A stretch of DNA of 64,000 nucleotides from Streptomyces physcomitrii (lineage in GTDB: Bacteria; Actinomycetota; Actinomycetes; Streptomycetales; Streptomycetaceae). Location of the stretch: positions 124,001 through 188,000 of the forward strand of contig NZ_JAAWWP010000002.1 in assembly GCF_012273655.1 (NCBI RefSeq). Direction: 5' to 3'. Numbering within the stretch: the stretch's first letter is position 1; every line of letters begins with the position of its first letter. The notes under the pieces are model-generated. The model had not been told where the DNA came from. It worked only from the letters and a program-made list of their open reading frames with translations, and searched no databases. The translations under genes were made by a program, and so were the position numbers. Shown here piece by piece: positions 853-22,797 of the stretch.

Positions 853-1866
853 ATGAGCCAGTCGGTGGAGTCTTCTCAAGGCGCTCAGGCAACGCTGGAA
901 TCAGTTCTGAAATCCATCCGGGATTACGGCGACAATGCCAGCGCGTTCCTCGCGGTCAATGAGGGGAACGAGTACTTCGAAGGCAGCGTAAAAGGCGTCA
1001 TCACCTATCGCAGGGCGGGCCGGTACTTCATCCAGTTCGGTGGAGTGACCGCCGAGCCGGATCAACAGCGCACACTCCTCGCGGAGTTCCAGAAGTACGC
1101 CCGCGCACAGCGCCGCCGCATCGTCGGAATCCAGCTCCAGCCGACGGACATCGACCTGTTCGCCTCCGCCGGCTTCACCGTGAACCAGGTGGGCTCCTCG
1201 TACTCGGTGCATCTGCCGGAATTCACGCTGCGCGGCACGAAGTTCATGAAGCTGCGCAACAAGATCTCACGGGCGAAGCGCAGCGGCCTGGAGGTGCGCG
1301 AACTGCCGTACGACGAGGGCGTCAAGCAGCAGATCGGGGAGATCGACCGGCACTGGCTGCGCTCGAAGGGCAGGCACGTCAAGGAGATCGAGTTCCTGGT
1401 GGGCCAGGTGGGCGGCCCGGCGCAGGAGCACCGCCGGCTGTTCGTGGGGCTCATCGAGGAGAAGCCGGTCGCCTACATCTCCTACTCCCCCGCCTACGGC
1501 AGCCGCCCGGGCTGGATGCACGATCTGAGCCGGCGGCTGCCCGATGTGAATCCGGGCGTCATGGAGGCCATCAACGCCGCGGCGATCGAGAAGTTCCGCC
1601 AAGAGGACGCCGAGTGGCTGCACTTCGGCTTCACTCCGTTCACCGGCCTCGATCCGGCCTGCGAGCATTCCGGGCACAGCCCGCTGACGGCGAAGTTCAT
1701 GCGGCTGCTCGCGGAGAAGGGCGGCTCGATCTACCCGGCGGCCACCCAGCTGGCGTACAAGGAGAAATGGGGACCGCACCTGGTGGTGCCGGAATACCTG
1801 GCGTTCCAGAACGGCCCCAGCTTCGGGGCGATCTGGCAGATCCTGCGCGTGACCAAGTCCATCTGA
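853..1866 (+). CDS. DUF2156 / VlmA-like aminoacyl-tRNA-dependent seryltransferase
   Basis: This 337-residue protein starts at ATG 853 with GGAG in the leader. It resembles the C-terminal catalytic domain of MprF-type lysyl-phosphatidylglycerol synthases (DUF2156, double GNAT fold), with conserved-looking segments such as NKISRAKRSGLEV and LHFGFTPFTGLD. In valanimycin biosynthesis VlmA has this fold and moves serine from seryl-tRNA onto an alkyl hydroxylamine. VlmB-, VlmJ- and VlmK-like genes nearby make the same role likely here: O-seryl transfer to an N-alkylhydroxylamine. No transmembrane segments are seen, so it is the soluble type rather than MprF. The gene is followed by a short repeat block and the convergent SARP gene. 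Confidence 0.75.
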   Translation: MSQSVESSQGAQATLESVLKSIRDYGDNASAFLAVNEGNEYFEGSVKGVITYRRAGRYFIQFGGVTAEPDQQRTLLAEFQKYARAQRRRIVGIQLQPTDIDLFASAGFTVNQVGSSYSVHLPEFTLRGTKFMKLRNKISRAKRSGLEVRELPYDEGVKQQIGEIDRHWLRSKGRHVKEIEFLVGQVGGPAQEHRRLFVGLIEEKPVAYISYSPAYGSRPGWMHDLSRRLPDVNPGVMEAINAAAIEKFRQEDAEWLHFGFTPFTGLDPACEHSGHSPLTAKFMRLLAEKGGSIYPAATQLAYKEKWGPHLVVPEYLAFQNGPSFGAIWQILRVTKSI

Positions 1867-7860: not shown

Positions 7861-7877
7861 ATACCAACAGTAGGTAT
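7861..7877. promoter_or_regulatory. TetR-type operator copy 2 upstream of MFS gene
   Basis: ATACCAACAGTAGGTAT has perfect ATACC/GGTAT arms around a 7-bp spacer. It abuts the stop codon of the PrpD-like gene at 7877 and lies 73 bp from copy 1. Confidence 0.55.
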
Positions 7878-9370
7878 TAATCGCGGAGGTGCAAGACCTG
7901 GCGCAGCACCTGTGCGAGATCTTGGGCCGAGAGCTCCTCCAGACGCGCCAGGGCGTCGGCCGCGGCCTCGTCCACGCCGGTACGCAGCAGCTTCTCGCGC
8001 ACCAGGGCCGGGTGGTCCCGCCAGGAGGCCGAGCCGACCGCGCCGGTTCCGGCGGCCAGCTCGCAGGTCTCCTCGCGGCCGTCGCGCATCCGCACCGTCA
8101 TGCGGCAGCCCAGCATCTTGGTGGCCTCCTCGAAGGAGGCGACGGGCGGACCGAGCTCCTCCAGGAGCTTCTCCATGGGGATGCCGGGCAGCTCCGTGTC
8201 CCACTCCAGGGCGCGCGGACCGGCATGGCGCAGCGTCTCGCCGACCGGGGCGGTGGACATCATGCCCAGCCTGCTCAGCTCCTCGTCCGCCTCCAGGCGC
8301 ACCCGCCCCGCCAGCTCCCAGCGGCCCTCCTCGGCCAGGCCGGGGGGCGCCAGGTCGGCCACGGTGAGGCCGCCGGTGAGCAGGGCGGTGGCCACGTTGT
8401 ACCCGGCGCTCAGATTGAGGGCGGGCAGCGAGGTGGCCGCGCCCCGCACATAGCGGTCGGCGTGCTTGCTCATCACCTTGGTCATGCCGGGCACCGCGAC
8501 GTCGACCGAGGCGATCTCGGCGGGGCCCTCGGGGCGCAGCCTGCGGTGCAGTTCGGCGGCGCACTCGACCAGGGCGTCCAGATGGACACCGGCGGGCAGC
8601 AGCTTGAAGGAGAGGGTCTCGGTGTGCCAGCGCTCACCGAGGCCGTACGCCACCAGCTCGGGCACGGCCGCGCCGGAGAAGACCGCGAGCAGCCCCTCGG
8701 GGTGCTCGATCACGTCGTCGCGCCCGGTGAGCCCGGCGAGCGCGGCGGCGCAGGCGTCGATCGCGGTGCGCACCGGAGCGGCGGCGGACAGCACCTTCGC
8801 GTCGCTGGCGAGCACGGCCGGGCGCAGCGCGCGCGGGGGCGCGGCCAGCGCCAGGCCCCAGGCGTTCAGGAGCTGCCCGGCGTCCGCGCCCCTGCCGTGC
8901 AGCAGGGCCGCGCAGGCCGCCACGACATGGGTGTGGCCGGCCCACTGGCCCCGGAAGGGACCGAGCGTCCCGGCGGCCGTGACCCGAGCGGCGGACTCGT
9001 CGGCGGCGGTCACCGCGGTGATGAGGTCGCGCCCGGACAGCCCCTGCTGCCGCTGATAGGCCACCGGGACGCCGACGGCGGCGTGCGAGACATGGCCCGC
9101 GTAGAGGGTGTCCTCCAGATAGAGGCTGGAGGACAGCGCTGCCATCAGATGCGCGGTACGGGCCGGGTCGCCCCCGGTGTCGAGCGGGCCGAACGCCGCG
9201 AGGAGGGTGCCGCCCACCGGATGGGGGGCGGTGGCCCGGACCGCGGCGAGGTGCGAGACGACCTGGCTGGTGACGACCGAGACGACCCGCGGCGGGATGT
9301 CCTCGTACCTCAGCTCCGCGGTCCACCGGGCGAGCGCCCGGGTGAGGCCGCCGCCGCTCTCGCCGCTCAT
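7877..9370 (-). CDS. MmgE/PrpD-family protein, VlmK-like (copy 1)
   Basis: The 497-residue protein has the two-domain MmgE/PrpD layout of 2-methylcitrate dehydratase relatives. In valanimycin biosynthesis VlmK, of this family, eliminates phosphate from valanimycin hydrate phosphate made by VlmJ, giving the dehydroalanine-type unit. The start ATG 9370 overlaps the stop of the VlmJ-like kinase (9367) by four bases, so the two are translationally coupled, as expected for consecutive steps. A second family member lies at 11478 on the other strand. The substrate by analogy is the O-phospho-seryl azoxy intermediate. Confidence 0.8.
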   Translation of the reverse strand: MSGESGGGLTRALARWTAELRYEDIPPRVVSVVTSQVVSHLAAVRATAPHPVGGTLLAAFGPLDTGGDPARTAHLMAALSSSLYLEDTLYAGHVSHAAVGVPVAYQRQQGLSGRDLITAVTAADESAARVTAAGTLGPFRGQWAGHTHVVAACAALLHGRGADAGQLLNAWGLALAAPPRALRPAVLASDAKVLSAAAPVRTAIDACAAALAGLTGRDDVIEHPEGLLAVFSGAAVPELVAYGLGERWHTETLSFKLLPAGVHLDALVECAAELHRRLRPEGPAEIASVDVAVPGMTKVMSKHADRYVRGAATSLPALNLSAGYNVATALLTGGLTVADLAPPGLAEEGRWELAGRVRLEADEELSRLGMMSTAPVGETLRHAGPRALEWDTELPGIPMEKLLEELGPPVASFEEATKMLGCRMTVRMRDGREETCELAAGTGAVGSASWRDHPALVREKLLRTGVDEAAADALARLEELSAQDLAQVLRQVLHLRD

Positions 9371-10362
9371 GCGACGCCCTCGGCGAGCTCCGCGGAGCCG
9401 GCGGCGTGCGCGAGGCCGGCCGCAGGCGGGGCCAGGACGGGCAGGACGCCGGGGAGCACGTCGATGGTGTAGCGGGAGGCCTCGCCCGTGCAGAGTTCGC
9501 CGTCGTGCTCGAAGGAGAGCTTCCTGCCGTCGGTGCGCTCCACGACGAAGCGGGAGCCGCGCTCGTACACCACGCCGGGGCGCCCGATGTGGCTGCCGTC
9601 CGCGGTCAGTCCGGCCAGCTCGCGCACGCCCATCTGGCCGCCCACGACGCAGACGTCGAGCAGTCCGTCGTCGATGACCGAGTGCGGCAGCAGCTTGAAC
9701 CGGCCCGCCCGGTAGCGGCCGCCGCCGATGTTCACCAGGACGACGGGGCCCTCGTGGACGACCCTGCCGTCCACGCTCACCCGGCCCTCGTACGGCGTGA
9801 AGGCGGCCATGGTCTGGGCGACGGCCTGCTGGTAGCGGTCGCGGCCGGGCACCTCGAACATGCCGTAGGCCGCCTCCAGGGCGTCGGCGACCAGGCCCGA
9901 GCCCGCGCCGAGCAGCGCCAGGACGTCGATCTCCCGGATGTGCGCCATGTCCACCCAGCGCAGCTGCGGCTGCTCGCCGGAGAGCGCCTGGTCCAGGACC
10001 GCGCTCCAGGGGGCGTCGGCCCAGATCTCCTGGTAGAACGAATTCCCGGTGCCGAAGGGGATGTTGACCATCGCGGGCCGCTTGCCCGCGCTCTGTTCGA
10101 GGCCCGCGCGGGCCAGGCCCGAGGCCGCCTCGCGGGTCGTGCCGTCACCGCCGAGCACGATCACCGCGTCGTACCCCGCGGCGACGGCCTCGGCGGCGCT
10201 CGCCTCGGCGTGCCCCTGGTACTCGGTGTGCACGACGTCGAGCCCCGGCACCAGGCCCCGGCAGTGGGCGATGACCTCGTCGATGTGCTGCCGGTCGCGG
10301 ACCCCGGCCTGGGGATTGGCGATGAGCAGGGCGCGGGCGGCCCATCCGGGTTCAGTCACCAT
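9367..10362 (-). CDS. Diacylglycerol-kinase-fold kinase, VlmJ-like
   Basis: The 331-residue protein opens with the DAGK catalytic domain: LLIANPQAG near the start, the nucleotide-binding GGDGT at residues 71-75 and PFGTGNS at 102-108. A beta-rich C-terminal domain follows (residues about 160-310). Lipid kinases of this family phosphorylate hydroxyl groups. VlmJ phosphorylates the seryl hydroxyl of valanimycin hydrate before VlmK elimination. Coupling to the PrpD-like gene (four-base overlap) and an 11-bp overlap with the upstream methyltransferase place it in a three-gene operon. A housekeeping lipid-kinase role is less likely in this setting. Confidence 0.82.
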   Translation of the reverse strand: MVTEPGWAARALLIANPQAGVRDRQHIDEVIAHCRGLVPGLDVVHTEYQGHAEASAAEAVAAGYDAVIVLGGDGTTREAASGLARAGLEQSAGKRPAMVNIPFGTGNSFYQEIWADAPWSAVLDQALSGEQPQLRWVDMAHIREIDVLALLGAGSGLVADALEAAYGMFEVPGRDRYQQAVAQTMAAFTPYEGRVSVDGRVVHEGPVVLVNIGGGRYRAGRFKLLPHSVIDDGLLDVCVVGGQMGVRELAGLTADGSHIGRPGVVYERGSRFVVERTDGRKLSFEHDGELCTGEASRYTIDVLPGVLPVLAPPAAGLAHAAGSAELAEGVA

Positions 10363-11263
10363 GGCCGCTCGCCCCCTCGCCCACGCGCCGCGCGGTGACC
10401 AGACCCATGAAGTCGTCGTCGCTGCAGTACGGATCGGTGCCGCCGTAGCGCCGGACGAGTCCGGCCACGCGCAGCTGCTCCACCGGCTCGAACCCCGCGT
10501 CCCGGGCCGTCGCGGCGGCGGTGGCCGGGGTCAGGCCGTTGATGTACGGCTCGCCCTGTTCGGCCACCTGGCGGGCCATCTGCAGGGCGCCCTCGTAGCG
10601 GCTGCTGCCGTCCACGACGGACTCGTCCATGTAGTCGAAGAGCAGCAGGCTGCCGGGGGCGACGGTGTCCGCCAGGTCGGCGAGGGTGGCGCGGCAGGCC
10701 TCGGGCGGCAGGAAGAAGGTCACCCCCAGCCAGCCCACGATGCACGGCTCGTCCAGGGCGAAGCCGTGCGCGGCCAGCTCGGTGCGCAGCGAGCCGCCCG
10801 CGGTGAAGTCGAGGGGCACCGAGGTGACCGGGGAGCTGAGGTCCGCCGCGGTGAGCGCCGCCAGCTTGGCGGTCTGCGTCGCGGGGTGGTCCACCTCGAA
10901 GAAGCGCACCGTCTCGGGGCCGCTCCAGCGCAGCGCCGTGGTGTCGTATCCGGCGCCGAGCAGCACGACCTGGCGCACCCCCGCCTCGACCCCGAGCGCG
11001 ACCAGGTCCTCGAAGTAGCGCTGGCGCAGCAGGATTTCGGCTATGAAGCCGCCGTGGGCGCTATCCAGGCGCTGGAGCCGGTCGAGGGCCTCCTCGGAGG
11101 TGGTGGGCGGCGGCACGGTGACGAAGAGGTGCGCGTAGGTGTCGCCGAGCAGTCGCCTGTCCGGCTCGATGACGGCGTCGGCGGCACGGGCGCGAGCGGT
11201 GAGATGGGCGGTCTCGCTCGCGTGCCCGGACTGCAGCCGGGTGGGCGGAGGTGCGGCTGTCAC
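10352..11263 (-). CDS. SAM-dependent O-methyltransferase, leucine carboxyl methyltransferase (PPM) family
   Basis: The 303-residue protein starts at GTG 11263. Motif I reads VVLLGAGYDT, followed by an acidic FFEVDHPATQ segment, both hallmarks of the LCM/PPM carboxyl methyltransferase family. Members methylate carboxylates, so methyl-esterification of the serine-derived carboxyl is the natural inference; methyl-ester azoxy metabolites such as azodyrecins are known. It is the first gene of the operon with the VlmJ- and VlmK-like genes. Family call strong, substrate inferred. Confidence 0.8.
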   Translation of the reverse strand: MTAAPPPTRLQSGHASETAHLTARARAADAVIEPDRRLLGDTYAHLFVTVPPPTTSEEALDRLQRLDSAHGGFIAEILLRQRYFEDLVALGVEAGVRQVVLLGAGYDTTALRWSGPETVRFFEVDHPATQTAKLAALTAADLSSPVTSVPLDFTAGGSLRTELAAHGFALDEPCIVGWLGVTFFLPPEACRATLADLADTVAPGSLLLFDYMDESVVDGSSRYEGALQMARQVAEQGEPYINGLTPATAAATARDAGFEPVEQLRVAGLVRRYGGTDPYCSDDDFMGLVTARRVGEGASGHGD

Positions 11264-13315: not shown

Positions 13316-14398
13316 TCAGCCGGTGGCGGCCGATCCCAACGCGCCCTCGGCGATGGCCTCGTGGACCTCGGCGCGCCTGGCCTCCATCTCGCGGCGCTCC
13401 GCGTCGAGGGCCTCGGCCTGGAGCTCGTCGGACTCCATCAGCTTGACCAGGTCGGCGCCCGCGAGGTCGAGGACGCCCATGTCGTCGTAGGCCTGCCGGA
13501 CCTTGGGGCTCCACAGGCCGATGTCCTTGACGCAGGGCACGATGCGGGTGAAGAGCAGTGAACGGAAGGCCCGCATGCGCGGACCGTTGTTCATGTACTC
13601 CATGCACTCCTTCATGTCGAACCCGAGGTTCTCCCAGACCTCCTGCATCCGCAGCCGGTCCCGCATCAGATAGCAGCCCTCGATGATGAACTCCTCGCGC
13701 TCCGCGAGTTCCTGGCTGCTCAGGTTCTTGTAGTAGTCCCGCAGCGCCAGCCGTCCGAAGGCGACGTGCCGGGCCTCGTCCTGCATGATGTACGAGAGGA
13801 TCTGCTTGGGCAGCGGCTTGGTGGTCTTGTCCCGCAGGATTCCGAAGGCGGCGAGCGCGAGCCCCTCGATGAGGACCTGCATACCGAGATAGGGCATGTC
13901 CCAGCGGGAGTCCGAAAGCGCCTGGCCGAGCAGCTCCTTGAGATGGGGGCTGATCGGATAGGTCATCTCGATCTTCTCCGTCACGAAGCGGGAGAAGAGC
14001 TCCACATGCCGGGCCTCGTCCATGACCTGCGTGGAGGCATAGAACTTCGAGTCCATGTCGGGCACGGATTCCACGATGCGCGCGGAGCAGATCATCGCGC
14101 CCTGCTCACCGTGCAGGAACTGGCTGAACTCCCAGGCCGCCATGTGCTGCCGGAGTTCCTGCTTCTCCCGTACGTTGAGCTTGGAGTACTGCTTCGAGCC
14201 GTACAGGCCGAGCGTGTTCTCCGGGGTGCCGAGGGCGTCGAAGGGGTCGACCTCAAGGGACCAGTCGATGCGCTTCGCGCTGTCCCACTGTTTGTCCTTG
14301 CCCTTTTGGTAAAGGTTCAGCAGGGTTTCACGCTCGGAATCATATTCCCATGTGAAATGGTTCCTGCCCTGCATGGGGAAAGTCCAGGCGGATTCCAT
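13316..14398 (-). CDS. Ferritin-like non-heme diiron enzyme, VlmB-like (azoxy formation)
   Basis: The 360-residue all-helical protein starts at ATG 14398 (AGGAG nine bases upstream). Two E-x-x-H diiron motifs are visible as DEARHVELFSRFV and DEARHVAFGRLAL, with partner Glu residues in HGEQGAM and IEGLAL. In valanimycin biosynthesis VlmB, a non-heme diiron enzyme, performs the four-electron oxidation of the N-N single bond to the azoxy group. With VlmA-, VlmJ- and VlmK-like neighbours that is the likely job. AurF-type N-oxygenase chemistry is an alternative. The reading frame upstream of this start is occupied by the tRNA-like gene, which lies 59 bp before the start codon in the same orientation. 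Confidence 0.82.
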   Translation of the reverse strand: MESAWTFPMQGRNHFTWEYDSERETLLNLYQKGKDKQWDSAKRIDWSLEVDPFDALGTPENTLGLYGSKQYSKLNVREKQELRQHMAAWEFSQFLHGEQGAMICSARIVESVPDMDSKFYASTQVMDEARHVELFSRFVTEKIEMTYPISPHLKELLGQALSDSRWDMPYLGMQVLIEGLALAAFGILRDKTTKPLPKQILSYIMQDEARHVAFGRLALRDYYKNLSSQELAEREEFIIEGCYLMRDRLRMQEVWENLGFDMKECMEYMNNGPRMRAFRSLLFTRIVPCVKDIGLWSPKVRQAYDDMGVLDLAGADLVKLMESDELQAEALDAERREMEARRAEVHEAIAEGALGSAATG

Positions 14399-14457: not shown

Positions 14458-14544
14458 CGGAGAGAGCAGGATTCGAACCTACGTGGGACATAAGCCCCGA
14501 CCGGACAAGTCCGGCCCCCGTTAGGCCACTACGGGAATCTCTCC
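14458..14544 (-). tRNA. Class II tRNA-Ser-like gene with non-canonical anticodon arm
   Basis: Read on the minus strand, 87 nt including the discriminator base fold as a class II tRNA. The acceptor is a perfect 7-bp GGAGAGA/TCTCTCC with discriminator G. The D stem is CCCG/CGGG with a TAGTGGCCTAA loop, which keeps the GG pair and resembles Streptomyces tRNA-Ser. The long variable arm is GGGG-CTTATG-TCCC. The T stem is GTAGG/CCTGC with a canonical TTCGAAT loop. A long variable arm plus G73 are serine identity elements. The anticodon arm is abnormal: GCCGG/CCGGT closes only a six-base ACTTGT loop, and the inner A-T pair would leave a CTTG tetraloop. No serine anticodon (NGA or GCT) is present. 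No CCA is encoded; CTCTTTTT follows. A dedicated seryl donor for the VlmA-like enzyme is inferred. Confidence 0.8.
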
Positions 14545-14594: not shown

Positions 14595-14623
14595 CTGATA
14601 TGTCGCTGAGATGGGAGTGTCAG
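14595..14623 (-). promoter_or_regulatory. Candidate sigma-70-type promoter for tRNA-like gene and diiron gene
   Basis: On the minus strand CTGACA (14623-14618) is followed after exactly 17 bp by TATCAG (14600-14595), about 50 bp before the tRNA-like gene. It would drive a transcript of tRNA plus diiron mRNA. Prediction only. Confidence 0.4.
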
Positions 14624-14705: not shown

Positions 14706-16607
14706 TCAGCGCCCGAGGGCGTCCCGTACCGCGGCGGTCAGGATGCGGGGGCCGTCCCGGGTGAGGATCGACTCGGGATGGAACTGCAGCGAGGTGAAGT
14801 GCGGGCCGCGCAGGGCGTGGACCTCGCCGTCGGCCGGGTCGTGGCTCACCTCGACGAGGCCGACGCCCGGCACCTCGCGTTTGTCCTCCTCGCTGCGGGC
14901 GGCGAAGGTGTTGTAGAAGCCGACGTGTTCGGGTGCGCCGAAGAGGTGGATCTGCTTCTGGACGCCCTGGTTGGGGGCCTTCAGGCGCAGGACCTCGAAG
15001 CCGAGGGCGAGGCTGAGCACCTGGTGGCTCAGGCAGACGGCGAGGAAGGGTGCCCGCCGGGCGAGCAGGGTGCGTACCGCCGTGTGCAGGTGGCGCATCC
15101 GCGGCTCCTCGCGCTGCGCCGGGTCCCCGGGGCCCGGGCCGAGGACGACCAGGTCCCAGCCGTCCAGGGAGTACTCCTCGTCGTAGCGGCGGACGGTCAC
15201 CGCGGGCCCGGTGGACCGGAGTTGATGCGCGATCATGGCGGTGAAGGTGTCCTCCGCGTCCACCACGAGCACCCGCAGACCGGCGAGCGGCGACCCGCCC
15301 CGGCCCGCCGCCCGCCCGTCGTCCGCGCGCAGCCAGAAGTCGGCGAGGGAGGCGTTGCGCAGCTCCAGGGCCGCCCTGACCTCGGGGTGGTCGGCGAATC
15401 GGGCGCCGCGGCCGGAGTCCAGGGCCGCGACCAGGCCGTCCGCCTTGGCGCGGGTCTCGGCGGCCTCGGCGCGCGGATCCGAGTGGCGTACCAGGGTCGA
15501 GCCGACGCCGATGCCCACCCGGCCCTCCGCGCCGAGGACGGCGGTGCGGATGAGGATGGCCGAGTCCAGCGCCGCCCGGCCTGCCCCGTCGCGTCCGAGG
15601 AGGGCGGCCACCCCGCTGTAGTAGCCGCGCCCCTGCGGCTCGTACCGGCTGATGACCCGGCACGCGCTCTCCAGCGGGGAGCCGGTCACGGTCGGGGCGA
15701 ACAGGGTCTCGCGCAGGATCTCGGCGGAACTGCGGGTGGTGTGCCCCTCGATGAGGTACTCGGTGTGGGCGAGGCGGGTCATCTCCTTGAGGTAGGGGCC
15801 GACGGCCCGGCCGCCGCCCTCGCAGATCCGGGCCATCATCTTCAGTTCCTCGTCGACGACCATGGACAGCTCGTCGGCCTCCTTGCGGTCGGCGAGGAAG
15901 TCCATCACGCCCGCCAGCGTGGGTCCTTGGGGCGGATACGGATACGTACCGCTGATGGGGTTCATCACCGCCTTGCCCCCCGCCACGCTGATGTGCCGCT
16001 CGGGGGTGGCGCCGACGAAGGTGCGGGCGCCGGTGTGGATGAGGAAGGTCCAGTAGGCGCCCGCCTCCCGTTGGAGCAGCCGGGAGAAGAAGGTCAGCGC
16101 GCTGTGCGGGCCGTAGTCGGTGATGTCGGCGACGAAGGAGCGCTTGATGACGAAGTTGGCGCCCTTGCCGGTGCCGATCTCCCGCTCGACGACCTCGCGG
16201 ACGATCTCCTGGTACGCGGCGTCGTCCACGTCGAAGTGGCCGCCGCTGAGGGTGATCGGCACCTGGGGCAGCCGGGCCAGCGCCTCCGGCAGGCTGAGCC
16301 GCTGCTGGTCGGTGACGGAGAGCGCGAGCAGCGGGGCGCCGTCGTCGGGGACGGTGAAGCCGCGCTCGGCGATCTGCCGGTAGGGGATGACGACGAGGAG
16401 TTCGTGGTGCGCGCGGCCCGGGTGCAACGGCTCGGCGGGCAGCGGGAGTTCGGCGAGCAGCGCGGGTTCGGTGACCTCGCCGGTGAGGACGTCCAGGGTG
16501 CCGGCGCCCGCGGCCTCGGGCCGGTACAGGAGGGCGTACGCGTCCGGCGGCTCGGTGAGGATCCGGGCCAGCAGGTCACCGGCCTCGGGCGCGACGGCGG
16601 CGCTCAT
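14706..16607 (-). CDS. PhzE-type 2-amino-2-deoxyisochorismate synthase (fused chorismate-binding and glutamine amidotransferase)
   Basis: The 633-residue protein starts at ATG 16607. Residues about 1-420 form the anthranilate-synthase component I fold ([11 protein letters not shown] and [13 protein letters not shown] are conserved). Residues about 440-620 form a class I glutamine amidotransferase with nucleophile Cys in VCLSHQ near residue 524. The fused architecture and the CLSHQ variant are typical of PhzE, which makes ADIC from chorismate and glutamine, rather than TrpE/TrpG. The four-base overlap with the PhzD-type gene upstream supports an ADIC to DHHA sequence. Without phzF, phzA/B or phzG the pathway should lead to 3-hydroxyanthranilate, not phenazine. 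Confidence 0.87.
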
Positions 16608-17227
16608 GCCAGGACCTCCTTCGCGGTGAGGACGCTCGCGCAGCGGGCGGCGGCGTACTCCAGCGCCATGCGGTGGTGGTCCGCGGTGAAGTCGGCGACG
16701 GCGTCGGCGACGAGGAAGGGCTGGATGTCGTGGGTGAAGGCCTCGACGGCGGTCATCAGGACGCCGACATGGGCGTAGACGCCGCAGAGGATGAGCTGGT
16801 CGCGGCCGTTCTCGCGCATCAGGTCCAGGAGCGGGGAGCGGAAGAAGGCGCTGTAGCGCCACTTGGTCAGCCGCCAGTCGGCCTCGGCGGGCGCCAGCTC
16901 CCCCACCACCTCGCGGTCGGCCGGTTCCGCGCGCATCCCCGGGCCCCAGAAGTCCGCGAGCAGGCCCCGCTCCTCGGCCGTCATGCTGCCGGGCTGGGCG
17001 GTGTACGCGACCGGGACGCCGAGCGCGGCGCAGCGTTCGCGTACCTCGGCGGCGTTGCGCACCAGCCAGCCGCGCACGCCCGCCGGAAAGGGCGCGAGGA
17101 AGTAGTGCTGCATGTCGTGGACGAGCAGCACCGCGCGGGCCGGATCAGGCGTCCACCGGGCGGTGTTGGCGGGCAGGTCACCGGCGGTGGGCGCCGGATA
17201 GGCCTCGATGGGCGGTATCCCTGGCAT
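16604..17227 (-). CDS. PhzD-type isochorismatase (ADIC to trans-2,3-dihydro-3-hydroxyanthranilate)
   Basis: The 207-residue isochorismatase-fold hydrolase starts at ATG 17227. Asp38 in [11 protein letters not shown], a Lys in [11 protein letters not shown] and the GVYAHVGVL turn correspond to the PhzD/EntB active site. It removes pyruvate from ADIC to give DHHA. Its stop overlaps the start of the PhzE-type gene, so the two are co-translated. There is no carrier domain as in EntB, which is consistent with PhzD. A repeat-containing 104-bp gap separates it from the ketoreductase upstream. Confidence 0.86.
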
Positions 17228-17248
17228 GGCTTCGCTCCCCGTTCCTGT

Positions 17249-17315
17249 CGCGCGTACGGCTCGTGACGCGTACGCCTGTTGTCGCGTACGGCTCGTGACG
17301 CGTACGGCTCGTGAC
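17249..17315. repeat. Short direct repeats in the PhzD leader
   Basis: CGCGTACGGCTCGTGACG starts at 17249, 17281 and 17298, in the spacer between ketoreductase and PhzD-type genes. Each copy contains partly self-complementary CGTACG and CGCG steps. It may be expansion of a small element; no function is shown. Confidence 0.5.
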
Positions 17316-17331
17316 GTGGGCGGCGGCCGGG

Positions 17332-18105
17332 TCAGCCGCTCAGGCCGCCGTTGATCTCGACGACCTGGCCGGTGAGGTAGGACGCCCGGTCCGAGACCAG
17401 GAAGGCGACCAGGTCGGCGACCTCCTCGGGGGTGCCGGCCCGGCCGAGCGGGATGTTCGCGAGGTGGCGCTCGGTCACCTCCGCGGGCAGGGCGGCCGTC
17501 ATGTCGGTGTCGATCAGGCCGGGCGCCACGGTGTTGGCCCGGATCCCGTACCGGCCGCACTCCTTGGCGAGCGAGCGGGTGAGGCCGATGATCCCCGCCT
17601 TGGAGGCCGCGTAGTTGGTCTGGGCGGCGCTGCCGTGCACCCCGGCGATGGAGGAGAGCGTGACGACGGCGCCGCGGCGGCGCTTCATCAGCGCGAAGAC
17701 GGCCGCCCGGCAGACGTGGAAGGTGCCGGTGAGGTTGGTGTCCACCACGCCGTGCCACTCCTCCTCGCTCATCAGGGCGAGCGGGCGGTCCCGGGTGATC
17801 CCGGCGGAGGTGACGACGGCCGACAGCGGGCCGAGCTCCCGCTCGGTCCCGGCGACGAACTCCTTCACCTCCCCGAACTCGGAGACGTCGACCCGCCGGT
17901 GGTGGACGCGGGCCCCCGCCTCCTCGGCCGCCTTGGCCGCGGACTCGGCGGCCGCGGTGTCGGAGCGGTAGCAGAAGGCGAGGTCGTAGCCGTCCTCGGC
18001 GAGGCGGAGCACGACCGCGCGTCCGATGCCCCGGGAGCCGCCGGTCACCAGCGCGACCGGGCGGGCGGCGGGCGCGGGCGACCCGCCCGTGCCGGTGCCG
18101 CTCAC
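17332..18105 (-). CDS. FabG-type 3-oxoacyl-ACP reductase (SDR)
   Basis: The 257-residue classical SDR starts at GTG 18105, overlapping the ACP stop by four bases. [11 protein letters not shown] binds NADPH, and the catalytic Ser and YAASKAG Tyr-Lys pair are present. The C-terminal [10 protein letters not shown] is typical of FabG. Coupling with ACP, KS and KS-beta indicates that it reduces a beta-keto group on the carrier of this pathway. No dehydratase gene is visible in the window, so the product may keep beta-hydroxyls or borrow a fatty-acid-synthase dehydratase. Confidence 0.85.
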
Positions 18106-18371
18106 CGCGCCGACCCGGTGCTCAGACCGGCCTCGACGAGTTCGCGGACGAGCTGGAAGCTGCCCATCTCGGTCAGCTGCGATTCGTCGATCTTCACGCC
18201 GAAGTGCTCCTCGACCCGTACGGCGATCTCCAGCGAGATCAGCGAGTCGACGTCCAGGTCCTCCTTGAAGCGCGCCTCGTCGGTGACTTCCTCGACGGGC
18301 AGTTCCAGGGCCCCGGCGACGACGGTGCGCAGCTCCTCGACGTCGAGCTGCGTGTCGGTGTGGTCGGCCAT
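18102..18371 (-). CDS. Acyl carrier protein
   Basis: The 89-residue protein has the phosphopantetheine site [10 protein letters not shown] (Ser near residue 43) and the four-helix ACP profile. It starts at ATG 18371 and overlaps the ketoreductase gene. It is probably the extension carrier for the KS/KS-beta pair. The separate N-terminal carrier domain of the 20551-22797 protein may instead hold the starter. Confidence 0.88.
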
Positions 18372-18401
18372 GCGGTGACTCCTCGGCTGGGTGGGGTGGG
18401 A

Positions 18402-19424
18402 TCAGGCGGTACGGGCGGGGCCGCTGAGGAAGACCGCGGCGACCGCGTCGTCCTCGGGGCCTCCGCAGGTGGCGAGCGCGGTGTGGGCGGCGTGGGTGTC
18501 GAAGTGGGCGACCGCGGCGGCGGCCTGGAGCAGGCCGAGCGCGCCGGAGCAGAGGCCGAGCGAGGCGGTCGGGTCGAGGACGGCCGCGGCCCGGACCGGG
18601 GGCGGGTCCTCGGGCGCGCTCTCCTCGCCGGCCGGGCGGTCGGTGAGCCACAGGTCGACGGCGGGCCCGGGGGCCTCGGCCCCGTCCGTGCGGCCGGGGC
18701 CGCCCGCGCGGGCGGCGGTGACGGCCGCGGTCAGGTCCGCGCCGCGGGCGCAGCCGGACAGGGTGGCGCGGACCCGGGCGCCGCGGGCGGCGGCGTGCTC
18801 GGCCGTCTCGACCACCAGGGCGACCGCGCCGTCCACGGCGGCCGCGCCGAGGAGCTTGGCCACCGCCTCGCCGTCCGGCTCCACGCCGACCACCAGGGCG
18901 GTCTCGGCGCGGCCCGCGACGAGCAGCGCGCGGGCCCAGTAGAGGGCGTCCAGGCCGCTGGTGGGGCCGTTGCACAGGGTGACGCTCGGGCCGCGCAGCC
19001 CGTGGGCCATGGCGACCGATCCGGCGATCACATTGCTGGAGGTCTGCGGCAGTCCCATCGGGGCGAGGCCGAGCACGGTGTCCCGGGCGATGATGTCGGC
19101 GAAGGAGCAGACGCTGTCCAGGATGCCGAAGTTGCTGCTGACCACGACGGCGGTGGCGTCGCCGTTTCCGGTGTATCCGGCGGAGCCGTCCTCGCCGAGC
19201 AGTCCGGCGTCCCGCAGGGCGGGCGCGGCGGTGCGCAGGGCGAGCCGGGAGGCGCGGTCCTTGTGCCGCAGATCGCGTCCGAGCAGTCCGGTACGGGGGT
19301 CGAAGCCGCCCTCGCGGACGGTGCCGAGGAGTTCATCGGGCAGGGTGAGACCGGGGACGGCCAGGCCCACGCCGGTGACGACGGCCTCGCGGCGGGCGGG
19401 CGCCGGGGAGTGTGCGCTGCTCAT
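18402..19424 (-). CDS. KS-beta / chain-length-factor-like dead ketosynthase
   Basis: The 340-residue thiolase-fold protein starts at ATG 19424, overlapping the KS stop by four bases. Aligned with the FabF-type GPSxxxATACTSG stretch it reads GPSVTLCNGPTSG, so the nucleophilic Cys is Pro (near residue 152). Neither the HGTGT nor the GHxxGA His motif is present; the latter region reads PTASLGLCSGALG. It cannot condense alone and should pair with the 19421-20554 KS as a chain-length factor, as in type II and highly reducing type II PKS systems. Confidence 0.8.
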   Translation of the reverse strand: MSSAHSPAPARREAVVTGVGLAVPGLTLPDELLGTVREGGFDPRTGLLGRDLRHKDRASRLALRTAAPALRDAGLLGEDGSAGYTGNGDATAVVVSSNFGILDSVCSFADIIARDTVLGLAPMGLPQTSSNVIAGSVAMAHGLRGPSVTLCNGPTSGLDALYWARALLVAGRAETALVVGVEPDGEAVAKLLGAAAVDGAVALVVETAEHAAARGARVRATLSGCARGADLTAAVTAARAGGPGRTDGAEAPGPAVDLWLTDRPAGEESAPEDPPPVRAAAVLDPTASLGLCSGALGLLQAAAAVAHFDTHAAHTALATCGGPEDDAVAAVFLSGPARTA

Positions 19425-20554
19425 CGTGCTGCCTCCAGGATCGCGGCGGCGTTGATCCCGCCGAAGCCGAACGCGTCGATCTGGGCGAGCCCCAGCTCGG
19501 CGGTGGCGGCCTCCTCGCGCACCAGGCGCAGACCGGCGGCCTCCTCGATGGGGTCGGTGAGGCCGAGGACCGGCGGCACCTGGCCGCGCTGCAGGGCGAG
19601 CGCGCCCATGGCGAGGCTCAGCAGCCCGGAGCCGCCGAGGGTGTGGCCGGTCATCGACTTGATGGCGGTCATCAGCGGCCCGCCGGGAGCCGGGAACATC
19701 CGCGAGAGGACGGCGGCCTCGGTGGAGTCGTTCTTCGGGGTGCCGCTGCCGTGCAGCAGGACGAGGTCGATGTCGGCCGGGTCGATCTCGGCCCGCCGGT
19801 GGGTCTCGCGCAGGACGCGGGCGATGCCCTCCGGGTCGGGGGCGGTGGAGTGCTGGGCGTCGCAGTTCATGCCGACCGCGCGCAGCCGCCCGTGCACCCG
19901 GCGGCCGGGGGCGGCCTCGCGGGTGAGCACCACCGCGACCGCGCCCTCGCCCATCAGCATGCCGCGGTGCGAGCGGTCGAAGGGGCGCAGCGCCTCGGGC
20001 ACGTCGTTCTGGACCCGGTCGAGGGTGCCGAAGGCGCTCTCGCCGATGGCGTCGGTCCCCGCCACCACCACGGTGTCGGCCTCGCCCAGCTCGATCAGAT
20101 CGGTCCCCATGGCGAGCGCGTAGAGGGTGGCCGCGCAGGCGTTGGCGAAGGTGTACGTACGGGTGGCGCCGTAGCGCTCGCGCAGGGCGGTGCCGAAGTG
20201 CAGCGCGTCCGGCTCCAGCGGGGCGCCCTCGCGCCACCACAGTTCGGCGCTGCGCTGCTCCTGGAGGGTGGTGCCGACCAGGACGGGCACCTCGGCGAGG
20301 TCCTCGGAATGACCGGCGTCGGCGAGGGCCTGGTCGATCGCCGCGAGCAGCCAGCGGGTGGCGCGGCCGGGCTCGTCGACGCCGGGCCGGGCGCGGTCGT
20401 GGATCTCGTAGGCCTGCCGGGCGCGGTACTTCTCGTGGTCGAAGACCTGGAGGGGGCCGAGGCCGCCGCGCCCCGCGCACAGCGAGTCGAAGATCCCGGC
20501 GGGGGTGCCGCCGACACAGGCGAGGGCTCCCATCCCGGTGATGTCCCAGCTCAT
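19421..20554 (-). CDS. 3-oxoacyl-ACP synthase (KS-alpha), active triad intact
   Basis: The 377-residue FabF-like protein starts at ATG 20554, overlapping the stop of the fused ligase gene. Nucleophile Cys lies in FANACAATLYAL (about residue 138), one His in LLHGSGTPKND (about 268) and the other in MTGHTLGGSG (about 302). It is the elongation partner of the dead KS-beta downstream. The compact size and order ligase-KS-KSbeta-ACP-KR recall aryl-primed type II systems such as aryl polyenes. The extender and number of cycles cannot be read from sequence. Confidence 0.85.
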   Translation of the reverse strand: MSWDITGMGALACVGGTPAGIFDSLCAGRGGLGPLQVFDHEKYRARQAYEIHDRARPGVDEPGRATRWLLAAIDQALADAGHSEDLAEVPVLVGTTLQEQRSAELWWREGAPLEPDALHFGTALRERYGATRTYTFANACAATLYALAMGTDLIELGEADTVVVAGTDAIGESAFGTLDRVQNDVPEALRPFDRSHRGMLMGEGAVAVVLTREAAPGRRVHGRLRAVGMNCDAQHSTAPDPEGIARVLRETHRRAEIDPADIDLVLLHGSGTPKNDSTEAAVLSRMFPAPGGPLMTAIKSMTGHTLGGSGLLSLAMGALALQRGQVPPVLGLTDPIEEAAGLRLVREEAATAELGLAQIDAFGFGGINAAAILEAAR

Positions 20555-22797
20555 TTTGCCTGCTCCCGAAGTCGGTGGGCGGCCACCTTGCCGGTGGTCG
20601 TGGTGGGCAGCGCCTCGACGAACTCCAGCCGCGCCGGGCGCTTGTAGGAGGCGAGGCCGGACCGGATACGGGAGCGCACCGCGCGGCGTACGGCCTCGTG
20701 GTCGCCGGCCTGCTCGGGGACGAGGAAGGCCACCGCGCTCTCCAGTCCGTCGGCGTCGCGGGCGGCGACCACGGCGCAGTCGCGGACCCCGTCGACCGCG
20801 CGCATCACGGCCTCGATCTCGGCCGGGGGGACCTTGTAGCCGCCGAGGTTGAGGACGTCGTCGACGCGGCACAGGTGGGTGAGGCCGCCGTCGGGGTCCC
20901 GGCGGACCAGGTCGCCGGTGTAGGCGCCGCCGTCCGCGAAGGTGACCCGGTCGGCCTCGGGGCGGTTGAGGTAGCCGAGCGAGACGGTGGGGCCCGCGAT
21001 GTGCAGCCGGCCCTCGGTGCCGTCGGGCACCGGCCGCCCCGCCTCGTCGCGGACGGTGGCGACGACGCCGGGGACGGGCATGCCCGCCCGGCCCGGCATC
21101 GGGCGGTCCGGCGGGGTGGCGACGACCACGTGCATCAGCTCGGTGGCGCCGAGGCAGTTGAGCACCGGGGCGCCGAAGGTGTCCTGGATCCGCAGGTACA
21201 GCTCGGCCGGGCAGTTCTCCCCCGCGGTCAGGCACAGCCGCAGCGCGGCCACCGCCTCCTCGCCGGGCCCGAGGACGTCCAGCAGGGCCGCGTAGAGGCG
21301 CGGTACGGAGCAGAGCACCGTCGGGCGGTGGCGGCGCAGGGCGGCGGTGACGGCGCGCGGGTCGACCGCGCCGCCGATCAGGACGGTCCGCGCACCGGCG
21401 TCCAGGGCGCACAGGACGGAGCTGCCGAAGCCGTAGCCGAAGGACATCCGGGCGGTGGAGAGCACGATGTCCTCGGCGCGCAGGGCGAGTTGGGCGCCGA
21501 AGCTGTCCAGCATGGCGGTGATCCCGGCGGCGGAGTGCTGCACGCCCTTGGGCTCCCCGGTGCTGCCGGAGGTGTACTGGATCAGGGCGGCCCGGTCGGC
21601 GCGGTGCACCGCGGGCTCCCCGGCGAGTCCGGGGCGGCGGGCGCCGTTGGGGCCGCCGCCGCGCAGCCCGGCGCGGACCTCCTCGCCGGTGAGCAGGACG
21701 CGGCCCCCGGCCGCCCGGGCGGAGGCCGGATCCCGGTGCGCCGGGGCGGAGTCCAGGTGGAGGACCCCGGCGGCGCAGTCCGCGGCGATGTGCTCCCGTT
21801 CGCCCTCGCCGAGCAGGGGGCTGACCGGTACGGGGACGCAGCCGTGCCACCAGAGCCCGAGGACCGCGGCGACGGTGGCCACCGAGTCCTCGGCGACGAC
21901 CACCGCGCGGGTACCGGGCGCCACCCCGAGCCCCGCCAGCGCTCCGGCGTAGCCGCGGGCCGCCTCGTACAGCTCGCGGTAGCCGATGTCGCCGAGGGCG
22001 GGGTCGGTGTAGGCGGTCCGGTCGCCGTGCCCGGCGTCGAGGTGACGGCCGACGAGGCGCCGGACCAGGTCGGTGGGGGCCGGAGGTGCCTGGGGGGTGG
22101 TGGGGGGCGGCGATGTGCGCGGGCGTCTCCCGGCTGCCGGGACGGGGGCGGTGTCCGGCGCGGGGGCGGTGTCCGGCGCGCGGTCGGCGCGCGGCACGCG
22201 GTCGGCGCTCGGCGCGGCGTCGGTGTCCGGAACACGGTCGGGGTCCGGAACGGCGTCGGCGCCCGGAACGCGGTCGGCGCCCGGCAGTTGCTCCCCCGCG
22301 GGCGCCGGGGCACGCGAGGCACCGGTGGCGGGAGGGCTGTCCGTACCGGAGGGACCGCCCCCGCCGGAGGGACCGCCCCCATGGGAGAGACCGGCGCCGC
22401 CGGAAGCCTTCTCCGTACGGGCAGCCTTCTCCGTACCGGAAGCACTCTCCGTACCGGAAGCCTTCTCCGTACCGGAAGCACTCTCCGTACCGGAAGCCTT
22501 CTCCGTGCCGGAAGCACGCACCGCACCCGGCAGGCCGCCCGTACCCGAAGGGCTCCCCGTCGCGAGCAGGCCCGCCGCGTCGAGGACGCTGTCGACCGCG
22601 GCGAACTCCTCGTCGGCGAGGGCGAGTCCGAAGCTGCGCTCGATGCGCGCGGCGATCTCCACCTTCTCCAGGGAGTCCAGGTTCAGGTCCTGCCGGAAGG
22701 AGGCGTCGGCGGGTATCTCGGCGAGGTCGAGTTCGAGAACGGTGGCCACGATGTGGCGCAGCCGCTCCACGGCGTCGGATGTCCGCTCAGGGGGCAC
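20551..22797 (-). CDS. Carrier-domain / benzoate-CoA-ligase-like adenylation fusion with repeat linker
   Basis: The 748-residue protein starts at ATG 22797. Residues 1-80 are a carrier domain with Ser42 in NLDSLEK. Residues about 80-235 are a low-complexity, Pro/Ala/Asp-rich linker containing hexapeptide repeats (ASGTEK/ASGTES). Residues about 240-748 are an ANL adenylation domain with YTSGSTGEPKG near 404 and a C-terminal TTTTGKVAAHRL Lys motif. It resembles benzoate-CoA ligases, so it probably activates 3-hydroxyanthranilate or another aryl acid and loads it on its own or a partner carrier. It is the first gene of the minus-strand operon. Confidence 0.82.
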   Translation of the reverse strand: MPPERTSDAVERLRHIVATVLELDLAEIPADASFRQDLNLDSLEKVEIAARIERSFGLALADEEFAAVDSVLDAAGLLATGSPSGTGGLPGAVRASGTEKASGTESASGTEKASGTESASGTEKAARTEKASGGAGLSHGGGPSGGGGPSGTDSPPATGASRAPAPAGEQLPGADRVPGADAVPDPDRVPDTDAAPSADRVPRADRAPDTAPAPDTAPVPAAGRRPRTSPPPTTPQAPPAPTDLVRRLVGRHLDAGHGDRTAYTDPALGDIGYRELYEAARGYAGALAGLGVAPGTRAVVVAEDSVATVAAVLGLWWHGCVPVPVSPLLGEGEREHIAADCAAGVLHLDSAPAHRDPASARAAGGRVLLTGEEVRAGLRGGGPNGARRPGLAGEPAVHRADRAALIQYTSGSTGEPKGVQHSAAGITAMLDSFGAQLALRAEDIVLSTARMSFGYGFGSSVLCALDAGARTVLIGGAVDPRAVTAALRRHRPTVLCSVPRLYAALLDVLGPGEEAVAALRLCLTAGENCPAELYLRIQDTFGAPVLNCLGATELMHVVVATPPDRPMPGRAGMPVPGVVATVRDEAGRPVPDGTEGRLHIAGPTVSLGYLNRPEADRVTFADGGAYTGDLVRRDPDGGLTHLCRVDDVLNLGGYKVPPAEIEAVMRAVDGVRDCAVVAARDADGLESAVAFLVPEQAGDHEAVRRAVRSRIRSGLASYKRPARLEFVEALPTTTTGKVAAHRLREQAK
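22400..22517. repeat. 18-bp tandem repeat encoding a hexapeptide linker
   Basis: Six consecutive 18-bp units of the form CCGGAAG(CCT/CAC)TCTCCGTA begin at 22400, followed by a partial unit. They encode alternating SGTEKA and SGTESA in the linker of the fused carrier-ligase. The near-identical DNA indicates recent slippage or expansion in frame. Confidence 0.85.

What the first reader, a model, noticed from the sequence alone, without database searches (positions are those of the whole stretch)
14458..14544. tRNA-Ser-like RNA with a non-decoding anticodon arm inside an azoxy cluster
Seen: the minus strand folds as a class II tRNA with intact acceptor (7 bp), D, variable and T arms and a G discriminator, resembling Streptomyces tRNA-Ser. 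The anticodon hairpin is a 5- or 6-bp stem closed by ACTTGT or CTTG, with no serine anticodon and not the normal 7-nt loop. Known: SerRS recognises the variable arm and acceptor and not the anticodon; VlmA transfers serine from seryl-tRNA; staphylococcal tRNA-Gly isoacceptors freed from translation serve cell-wall FemXAB enzymes. Inference: this is a dedicated seryl carrier that separates biosynthetic serine from translation. I do not know of such a tRNA described for azoxy pathways.
Basis: partly seen in the sequence, partly recalled or inferred. Interest (0 to 1): 0.93.

Follow-up and report, generated by a model that had tools for sequence, protein, structure and literature searches.

The report
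Anticodon-less serine tRNA for antibiotic making
A predicted azoxy-compound gene cluster of a Streptomyces carries a gene for a serine-type transfer RNA whose predicted fold has no normal anticodon loop, and it likely serves as a private carrier that would hand serine to a biosynthetic enzyme instead of to the ribosome.

Summary
Window 14458-14544 (-) belongs to a conserved family of class II, serine-type tRNAs without a decoding anticodon arm. In 176 distinct sequences the acceptor, D and T arms are conserved, while the anticodon arm is a hypervariable hairpin (predicted loops of 3-5 nt in 163; 7 nt in 3, none with U33) whose stem covaries. In 392 Streptomyces genomes all 51 with the RNA also have a VlmA-type seryl transferase; 31 have VlmA alone, 310 neither (Fisher p about 1e-42). 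The RNA lies within 300 nt of vlmA in 20 of 33 loci, with a SerRS gene nearby in 15 of 33 (0 of 33 other VlmA loci). A SARP-type operator precedes 141 of 154 distinct genes (1.0% of control stretches). Some genomes hold 8-15 scattered copies; four lack the copy beside vlmA but keep scattered ones, pointing to a trans-acting RNA. Best reading: a pathway-regulated seryl carrier dedicated to VlmA and kept out of translation. Expression, charging and transfer are untested. The window's cluster has no SerRS; the genome's single one would charge it.

The parts
14458..14544 (-). serine-type class II tRNA-like gene without a decoding anticodon loop
   Evidence: family
14499..14516 (-). hairpin in place of the anticodon arm: 7 bp closed by CUUG
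   Evidence: in 38 aligned relatives all seven stem pairs show changes on both sides
14466..14482 (-). T arm GTAGG/CCTGC with A51-U63 where the four ordinary tRNA-Ser genes of this genome have G-C
14595..14609 (-). SARP-type operator TCAG-N7-TCAG, 50 bp before the RNA; only one in the window
853..1866 (+). VlmA-type aminoacyl-tRNA transferase, PF09924
2043..2906 (-). SARP-type regulator (Trans_reg_C + BTAD)
7877..9370 (-). VlmK-type MmgE/PrpD protein
9367..10362 (-). VlmJ-type lipid-kinase-like protein (PF00781/PF19279)
10352..11263 (-). carboxyl methyltransferase PF04072
11478..12983 (+). second MmgE/PrpD protein
13316..14398 (-). AurF-type N-oxygenase, ATG 60 nt after the RNA (start chosen by eye; the listed open frame runs to 14656)
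14706..16862 (-). PhzE-like chorismate-binding + glutamine amidotransferase protein

Best explanation
The gene at 14458-14544 (-) encodes a tRNA-Ser-type RNA whose predicted fold has no decoding anticodon loop, and it likely is charged with serine by SerRS and would hand that serine to the cluster's VlmA-type transferase rather than to the ribosome. Shown by sequence: conserved acceptor, D and T arms, a long variable arm and G73; a paired but hypervariable hairpin in place of the anticodon arm; co-occurrence with VlmA-type genes; a shared SARP-type operator. Inferred: a SARP of the pathway switches the RNA on with the cluster; SerRS (here the only one found in the genome, elsewhere often a cluster copy) charges it, because SerRS reads the variable arm and G73 and not the anticodon; the short hairpin cannot present a triplet and A51-U63 would weaken EF-Tu binding, so the charged RNA stays out of translation; VlmA moves the serine to a hydroxylamine as in valanimycin biosynthesis; scattered copies in some genomes raise the dose in trans.
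For: 51 of 51 RNA-positive Streptomyces genomes carry VlmA, against 31 of 341 RNA-negative ones. RNA within 300 nt of vlmA in 20 of 33 loci; SerRS within 10 kb of vlmA in 15 of 33, 0 of 33 other VlmA loci. Covariation: 12 of 27 pairs changed on both sides, 66 cells, 0 of 500 shuffles. Predicted loops 3-5 nt in 163 of 176. TCAG-N7-TCAG in 141 of 154 distinct genes, controls 1.0%, and in 20 of 21 copies far from vlmA. In 384 genomes across the class, the 3 with full-length hits all have VlmA. A51-U63 in 176 of 176, partly by choice of search pattern; 77 of 77 in the set gathered by BLAST. SerRS identity in variable arm and G73: PMC7609411 (passages).
Against: No expression, charging or transfer data. 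31 of 82 VlmA genomes lack the RNA, three of their VlmA loci lying inside the RNA-positive VlmA clade, so VlmA chemistry can do without it. The valanimycin transfer was shown in vitro, to my recollection with ordinary tRNA; that paper is not held. GG at 18-19 and G49-C65 are kept, unlike the S. aureus non-proteinogenic tRNA-Gly. Scattered copies are unexplained. Only 21 of 80 named 8-kb stretches examined hold VlmA, many others being scattered copies or cut stretches. The window's own cluster lacks a SerRS and its RNA lies 12.6 kb from vlmA.
Confidence: 0.83

Rival explanations
1. It is a non-decoding seryl-tRNA, but it serves another enzyme of the pathway or a read-out of serine charging, not VlmA itself.
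For: VlmA association cannot by itself name the customer; 31 of 82 VlmA genomes have no such RNA. In the window the nearest gene is an AurF-type oxygenase.
Against: VlmA is the one aminoacyl-tRNA-using enzyme known for these pathways (PMC12945691, PMC9379638, passages) and the RNA is next to it in 20 of 33 loci.
Confidence: 0.08
2. It is a cis-acting structure: a leader, processing signal, or integration site shaped like a tRNA.
For: Often sits between divergent genes or before a gene; tRNA genes are common integration sites.
Against: Far-off copies with the same operator (20 of 21); genomes with VlmA and SerRS lacking the copy beside vlmA but keeping others; no neighbour family shared by most of 71 loci, the commonest being a transporter family in 11 and SARP in 9; strict conservation of serine-type arms.
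Confidence: 0.05
3. It is a decoding tRNA with an unusual anticodon (suppressor or recoding).
For: ARAGORN gives many members a triplet, such as tcg, ttt or tca.
Against: The triplets differ from member to member and 173 of 176 predicted loops are not 7 nt, with no U33 in the three that are. Loop sizes are MFE predictions.
Confidence: 0.03
4. It is a dying tRNA pseudogene.
For: No usable anticodon.
Against: 176 distinct sequences with conserved arms, compensatory changes and a conserved operator.
Confidence: 0.01

Closest known systems
Valanimycin VlmL/VlmA seryl-tRNA route (S. viridifaciens)
   Same: VlmA-type transferase using seryl-tRNA, in other loci with a cluster SerRS; SARP-type regulator
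   Different: No dedicated tRNA was mentioned in the passages read; PMC4052509 (2014) calls the diversion from translation unknown. The vlm locus itself could not be inspected here
S. aureus non-proteinogenic tRNA-Gly isoacceptors (cell-wall FemXAB)
   Same: Isoacceptors set aside for non-ribosomal use; A51-U63 in the T stem (as described in PMC4052509, passages)
   Different: Those are isoacceptors with anticodons (recalled), tied to cell wall; here the decoding loop is gone, GG18-19 is kept, and the gene belongs to a biosynthetic regulon
Allo-tRNA and tRNA-Sec
   Same: Serine-accepting class II tRNAs with odd anticodon arms or anticodons (PMC7609411, passages)
   Different: Their acceptor domains are 8/4, 9/3 or 8/5; this one is 7/5. 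They are used in translation or tested there
tRNA-Asp-AUC of a desert Streptomyces (PMC9262613, two of seven text parts read)
   Same: An odd Streptomyces tRNA linked to antibiotic yield; ARAGORN labels some members here Asp
   Different: Its qPCR primer sequences do not fit this family, and it is reported to decode GAU

Membership tests
Canonical tRNA-Ser | 7/5 acceptor domain, long variable arm, G73 | tested here: met
Canonical tRNA-Ser | 7-nt anticodon loop with U33 and a serine anticodon | tested here: not met
   173 of 176 relatives have other predicted loop sizes
Canonical tRNA-Ser | charged by SerRS | not testable with these tools
   identity parts present; no assay
tRNA-Sec | 8-bp acceptor, 6-bp D stem, UCA anticodon | tested here: not met
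   7-bp acceptor, 4-bp D stem, no UCA; 40.6 bits, below the gathering score of 47
Allo-tRNA | 12-bp acceptor domain as 8/4 or 9/3 | tested here: not met
   7/5
Translation-diverted isoacceptor (S. aureus tRNA-Gly type) | A51-U63 in place of G51-C63 | tested here: met
   four ordinary tRNA-Ser of the genome have G-C
Translation-diverted isoacceptor (S. aureus tRNA-Gly type) | UU or CU in place of GG at 18-19, and A49-U65 | tested here: not met
   GG invariant in 38 aligned sequences; 49-65 is G-C or G-U
Translation-diverted isoacceptor (S. aureus tRNA-Gly type) | weak EF-Tu binding, use outside the ribosome | not testable with these tools
   bench work
VlmA-type azoxy cluster | VlmA-type PF09924 with VlmJ/VlmK and methyltransferase families | tested here: met
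VlmA-type azoxy cluster | VlmH-type flavoprotein and further pathway enzymes nearby | tested here: inconclusive
   an acyl-CoA-dehydrogenase-type and an AurF-like protein lie just outside the window; not compared with VlmH, VlmO or VlmB themselves

The most novel reading that the evidence does not exclude
Actinomycetes have evolved a tRNA out of the genetic code: a private seryl-tRNA system for azoxy biosynthesis, made of anticodon-less tRNA-Ser genes that form a scattered SARP-switched regulon, in some lineages a private SerRS, and VlmA as the customer, so that serine for the metabolite need not compete with protein synthesis.
Probability: 0.75. Interest if true: 0.96.

Novelty: categorically new. 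Interest (0 to 1): 0.94.

Why it matters
[quoted passage not shown] This gives a concrete and testable answer, a natural candidate for an orthogonal aminoacyl carrier, and a genomic marker for one group of azoxy clusters. It would be a tRNA gene family that evolution removed from decoding and put under pathway control; ARAGORN labels its members Arg, Lys, Asp and others, or misses them.

Tried and rejected
Pseudogene: set aside by conservation and covariation. Selenocysteine and allo-tRNA: set aside by stem lengths. Identity with the published tRNA-Asp-AUC: set aside by its primer sequences. A neighbour or integrase common to loci without VlmA: none found in most of 71 loci; 7 cluster representatives scanned, none an integrase. 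A diverged copy in VlmA loci without the RNA: model R1 gave nothing above 21 bits in 32 such loci. R1 in 10 whole genomes, among them the three RNA-negative genomes whose VlmA falls in the RNA-positive clade (G073, G086, G337), gave 26 matches: one known member in G303 at 93 bits and 25 others at 41-57 bits, the range of the four ordinary tRNA-Ser of the window's genome (45-55); I did not check each of the 25. The published valanimycin locus could not be reached by name. One location script failed through a wrong pattern and the next gave 5' ends too long; both were replaced. One search showed no 7-nt loop but left L085 unparsed; one search corrects this to 3 of 176.

Rows dropped before counts: 14 of 65 pattern-positive genomes were not counted as members. 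Thirteen have listed matches ending CTCGTCG or CTCGCCG; four of these (G344, G227, G020, G334) were looked at and are a different, class I tRNA-like, nine were not looked at; the place in G034 was not listed. With all 65 counted, 52 have VlmA (p = 4e-31). L119 and L120 (ordinary tRNA-Ser) and L122 were dropped from the family. From the operator count I left out copies with under 130 nt upstream and those just behind another copy (161 of 191 kept, 154 distinct).

Literature: ten searches of the open-access library, without bioRxiv and most subscription journals; I saw no description of this RNA in the listings or passages. Garg 2008 is not held.

Full report
OBSERVATION. At 14458-14544 on the minus strand ARAGORN reports the only tRNA gene of the window, 'tRNA-???' with a four-base anticodon. 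The RNA folds as a class II cloverleaf at -45.6 kcal/mol, z = -4.19, 0 of 200 shuffles as stable. The acceptor (GGAGAGA/TCTCTCC, G73), D and T arms and a long variable arm are intact; where the anticodon arm should be there is a 7-bp stem closed by CUUG. No Rfam family reaches its gathering score; the best match is tRNA-Sec at 40.6 against 47 bits. The genome has one copy.

THE CLUSTER. A VlmA-type PF09924 protein (853-1866), a SARP (2043-2906), VlmK and VlmJ types (7877-9370, 9367-10362), a PF04072 methyltransferase, an AurF type and a PhzE-like protein are in the window. Just outside it on the same contig lie an aldehyde dehydrogenase, an acyl-CoA-dehydrogenase-type protein (VlmH candidate), a class III aminotransferase, an AurF-like protein and a fatty-acid desaturase. 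PMC9379638 (passages) names PF09924, PF19279/PF03972, PF04072 and SerRS among the families of aliphatic azoxy clusters. The SerRS search finds one protein in the genome, on contig C49, so this cluster has none of its own.

A FAMILY, NOT A RELIC. BLAST with the 87-mer in 392 Streptomyces genomes gave matches in 63, some partial and two of them ordinary tRNA-Ser. Reading them showed acceptor, D and T arms that hardly vary around an anticodon hairpin that differs widely. In an alignment of 38 chosen sequences 95.6% of cells pair, 12 of 27 pairs show changes on both sides, in 66 cells, with 0 of 500 shuffles as high; all seven pairs of the anticodon hairpin are among them, and pair 13:22 goes from G-C (30) to A-U (8). 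The structure was drawn from the window's own fold, which favours it over slid versions, and related rows can exceed such shuffles. Over 176 distinct sequences, gathered partly with a fixed pattern, predicted loops are 3 nt (31), 4 (85), 5 (47), 6 (7), 7 (3) and 8 (3), with 86 different loop sequences; the three 7-nt loops lack U33. Model R1 gives 81-93 bits to the members scored (some were in its alignment) and 45-55 to the four ordinary tRNA-Ser of this genome.

ASSOCIATION WITH VlmA. In the same 392 genomes VlmA-type proteins (E up to 1e-30) occur in 82 and the RNA in 51 (from, 14 of 65 pattern-positive genomes dropped as told). All 51 have VlmA; 31 have VlmA alone; 310 neither; Fisher p = 9.6e-43; shared descent makes this p optimistic. 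With all 65 kept, 52 have VlmA, p = 4e-31. By my hand tally, 43 of 51 have a copy within 35 kb of vlmA on one contig, 4 have RNA and vlmA on different contigs, and 4 have only distant copies. Of 66 VlmA loci examined, 33 are from RNA-positive genomes, 32 from RNA-negative ones and one is the second VlmA of G303, which has no copy nearby. In the 33 the RNA lies within 300 nt of vlmA in 20, at 2.3-2.4 kb in 4, at 5.5 kb in 1, at 8-13 kb in 4 (the window among them) and not in the locus in 4; a SerRS lies within 10 kb of vlmA in 15 of the 33 and in 0 of the other 33 (some loci are cut short). In a VlmA tree of 77 rows the RNA label needs 3 changes against 24.8 in shuffles (quick method; near-copies help such clustering). 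Three RNA-negative loci (L128, L132, L152) fall inside the positive clade.

OUTSIDE STREPTOMYCES. In 384 genomes spread over the class, full-length hits occur in 3 (G000, G653, G654), all with VlmA; VlmA (E up to 1e-60) occurs in 8. One more of the 8, G472, has a tRNA-Ser-like with a four-base anticodon and a predicted 8-bp hairpin closed by GUGA, 9 kb from VlmA. Its 56.6 bits lie near the range of ordinary tRNA-Ser and its acceptor resembles tRNA-Ser(CGA), so it may be a separate origin. A pattern scan of GTDB contigs (stopped at 120 stretches) adds Salinispora, Actinokineospora, Saccharothrix, Micromonospora, Parafrankia, Kitasatospora, Embleya, Wenjunlia and others. Of the 80 stretches shown, 21 also hold a VlmA match. 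In S. atratus JCM 3386 the genome has one VlmA and one RNA match, 0.12-0.15 kb apart; PMC11705231 lists elaiomycins for S. atratus NRRL-16927 (passages). That the two strains are the same is recalled, not checked.

REGULATION. Upstream of the RNA genes lie TCAG half-sites at 11-bp spacing. The exact pair TCAG-N7-TCAG is in 141 of 154 distinct genes and in 1.0% of 6160 control stretches from the same loci; other spacings from 3 to 16 give 0-2 of 154; three half-sites (at least 10 of 12 letters) are in 130 of 154. Among copies far from vlmA, 20 of 21 have the pair. The window has one such pair in 64 kb, 50 bp before the RNA; about one anywhere is expected by chance, so the window's site alone proves little. 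GTCAGSS is the consensus given for the SARP PapR2, and heptamers with 4-bp spacers are the SARP binding layout (PMC7040171, PMC5930380; passages). The reference list of PMC4052509 names VlmI as a SARP of valanimycin biosynthesis. Binding here is inferred.

SCATTERED COPIES. Some genomes have many matches: 13 in G327 and 12 in G365; 15 in S. griseofuscus DSM 40191, 14 of them exact, at 0.03-0.51 and 7.98-8.69 Mb of one contig and one on a second, vlmA being at 2.37 Mb. In L155, L157, L158 and L159, all with a SerRS near VlmA, no RNA is found beside vlmA; in L157, L158 and L159 a matching piece of its promoter (GTGAACGGCACGG) remains (read by eye), and those four genomes have 4-8 pattern matches elsewhere. 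This speaks for a trans-acting RNA. How copies spread is unexplained.

MECHANISM. SerRS reads the variable arm and G73 and not the anticodon (PMC7609411, passages), so charging is expected. The T stem has A51-U63, where the four ordinary tRNA-Ser genes have G-C; in S. aureus tRNA-Gly this change is tied to weak EF-Tu binding (PMC4052509, passages). A 3-5-nt loop cannot present a normal anticodon. VlmA moves serine from seryl-tRNA to a hydroxylamine (PMC12945691, PMC9379638, passages). Together: a private seryl carrier for azoxy biosynthesis. Expression, charging, exclusion from translation and transfer are untested.

NOVELTY. PMC4052509 (2014) says that the way Ser-tRNA is diverted to valanimycin is unknown. 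Ten library searches showed no report of this RNA; the library is open-access only. The idea of diverted isoacceptors has a precedent in S. aureus; a tRNA family without a decoding loop that belongs to a small-molecule pathway has none that I know of, hence 'categorically new' for the RNA, while the pathway logic is a known one taken further.

Noticed in passing
L122:9993-10068, L294:9976-10052, L295:9986-10060, L296:9998-10072: A second odd tRNA-like, class I size, acceptor GRCGAGG, same T arm, G after the acceptor; ARAGORN gives 4-base anticodons (cgct, cgca, ctga). Related T-arm matches in nine more Streptomyces genomes. Neighbours uninformative.
   Followed up: partly
S. griseofuscus DSM 40191 (L183 and its genome), G327, G365, G003, G282: 9-15 pattern matches of the RNA scattered over one genome, in S. 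griseofuscus near both ends of the chromosome record; no common neighbour. How they spread is unknown.
   Followed up: partly
L297:2075-2162: A tRNA-Ser(CGA)-like gene with a four-base anticodon and predicted 8-bp hairpin closed by GUGA, 9 kb from VlmA in another family; shares A51-U63, possible convergent origin.
   Followed up: partly
L092:9961-10236, L099:9786-10129, L112:9814-10154, L117:9899-10240, L256:3978-4378: Tandem arrays of three copies of the RNA.
   Followed up: no
L155, L157, L158, L159, upstream of vlmA: VlmA-SerRS clusters without the RNA beside vlmA; in three a promoter piece remains in place.
   Followed up: partly
window 14706-22797: PhzE-like, isochorismatase, SDR, ketosynthase and AMP-ligase/carrier-protein genes beside the azoxy genes suggest an aromatic part in the product.
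   Followed up: no
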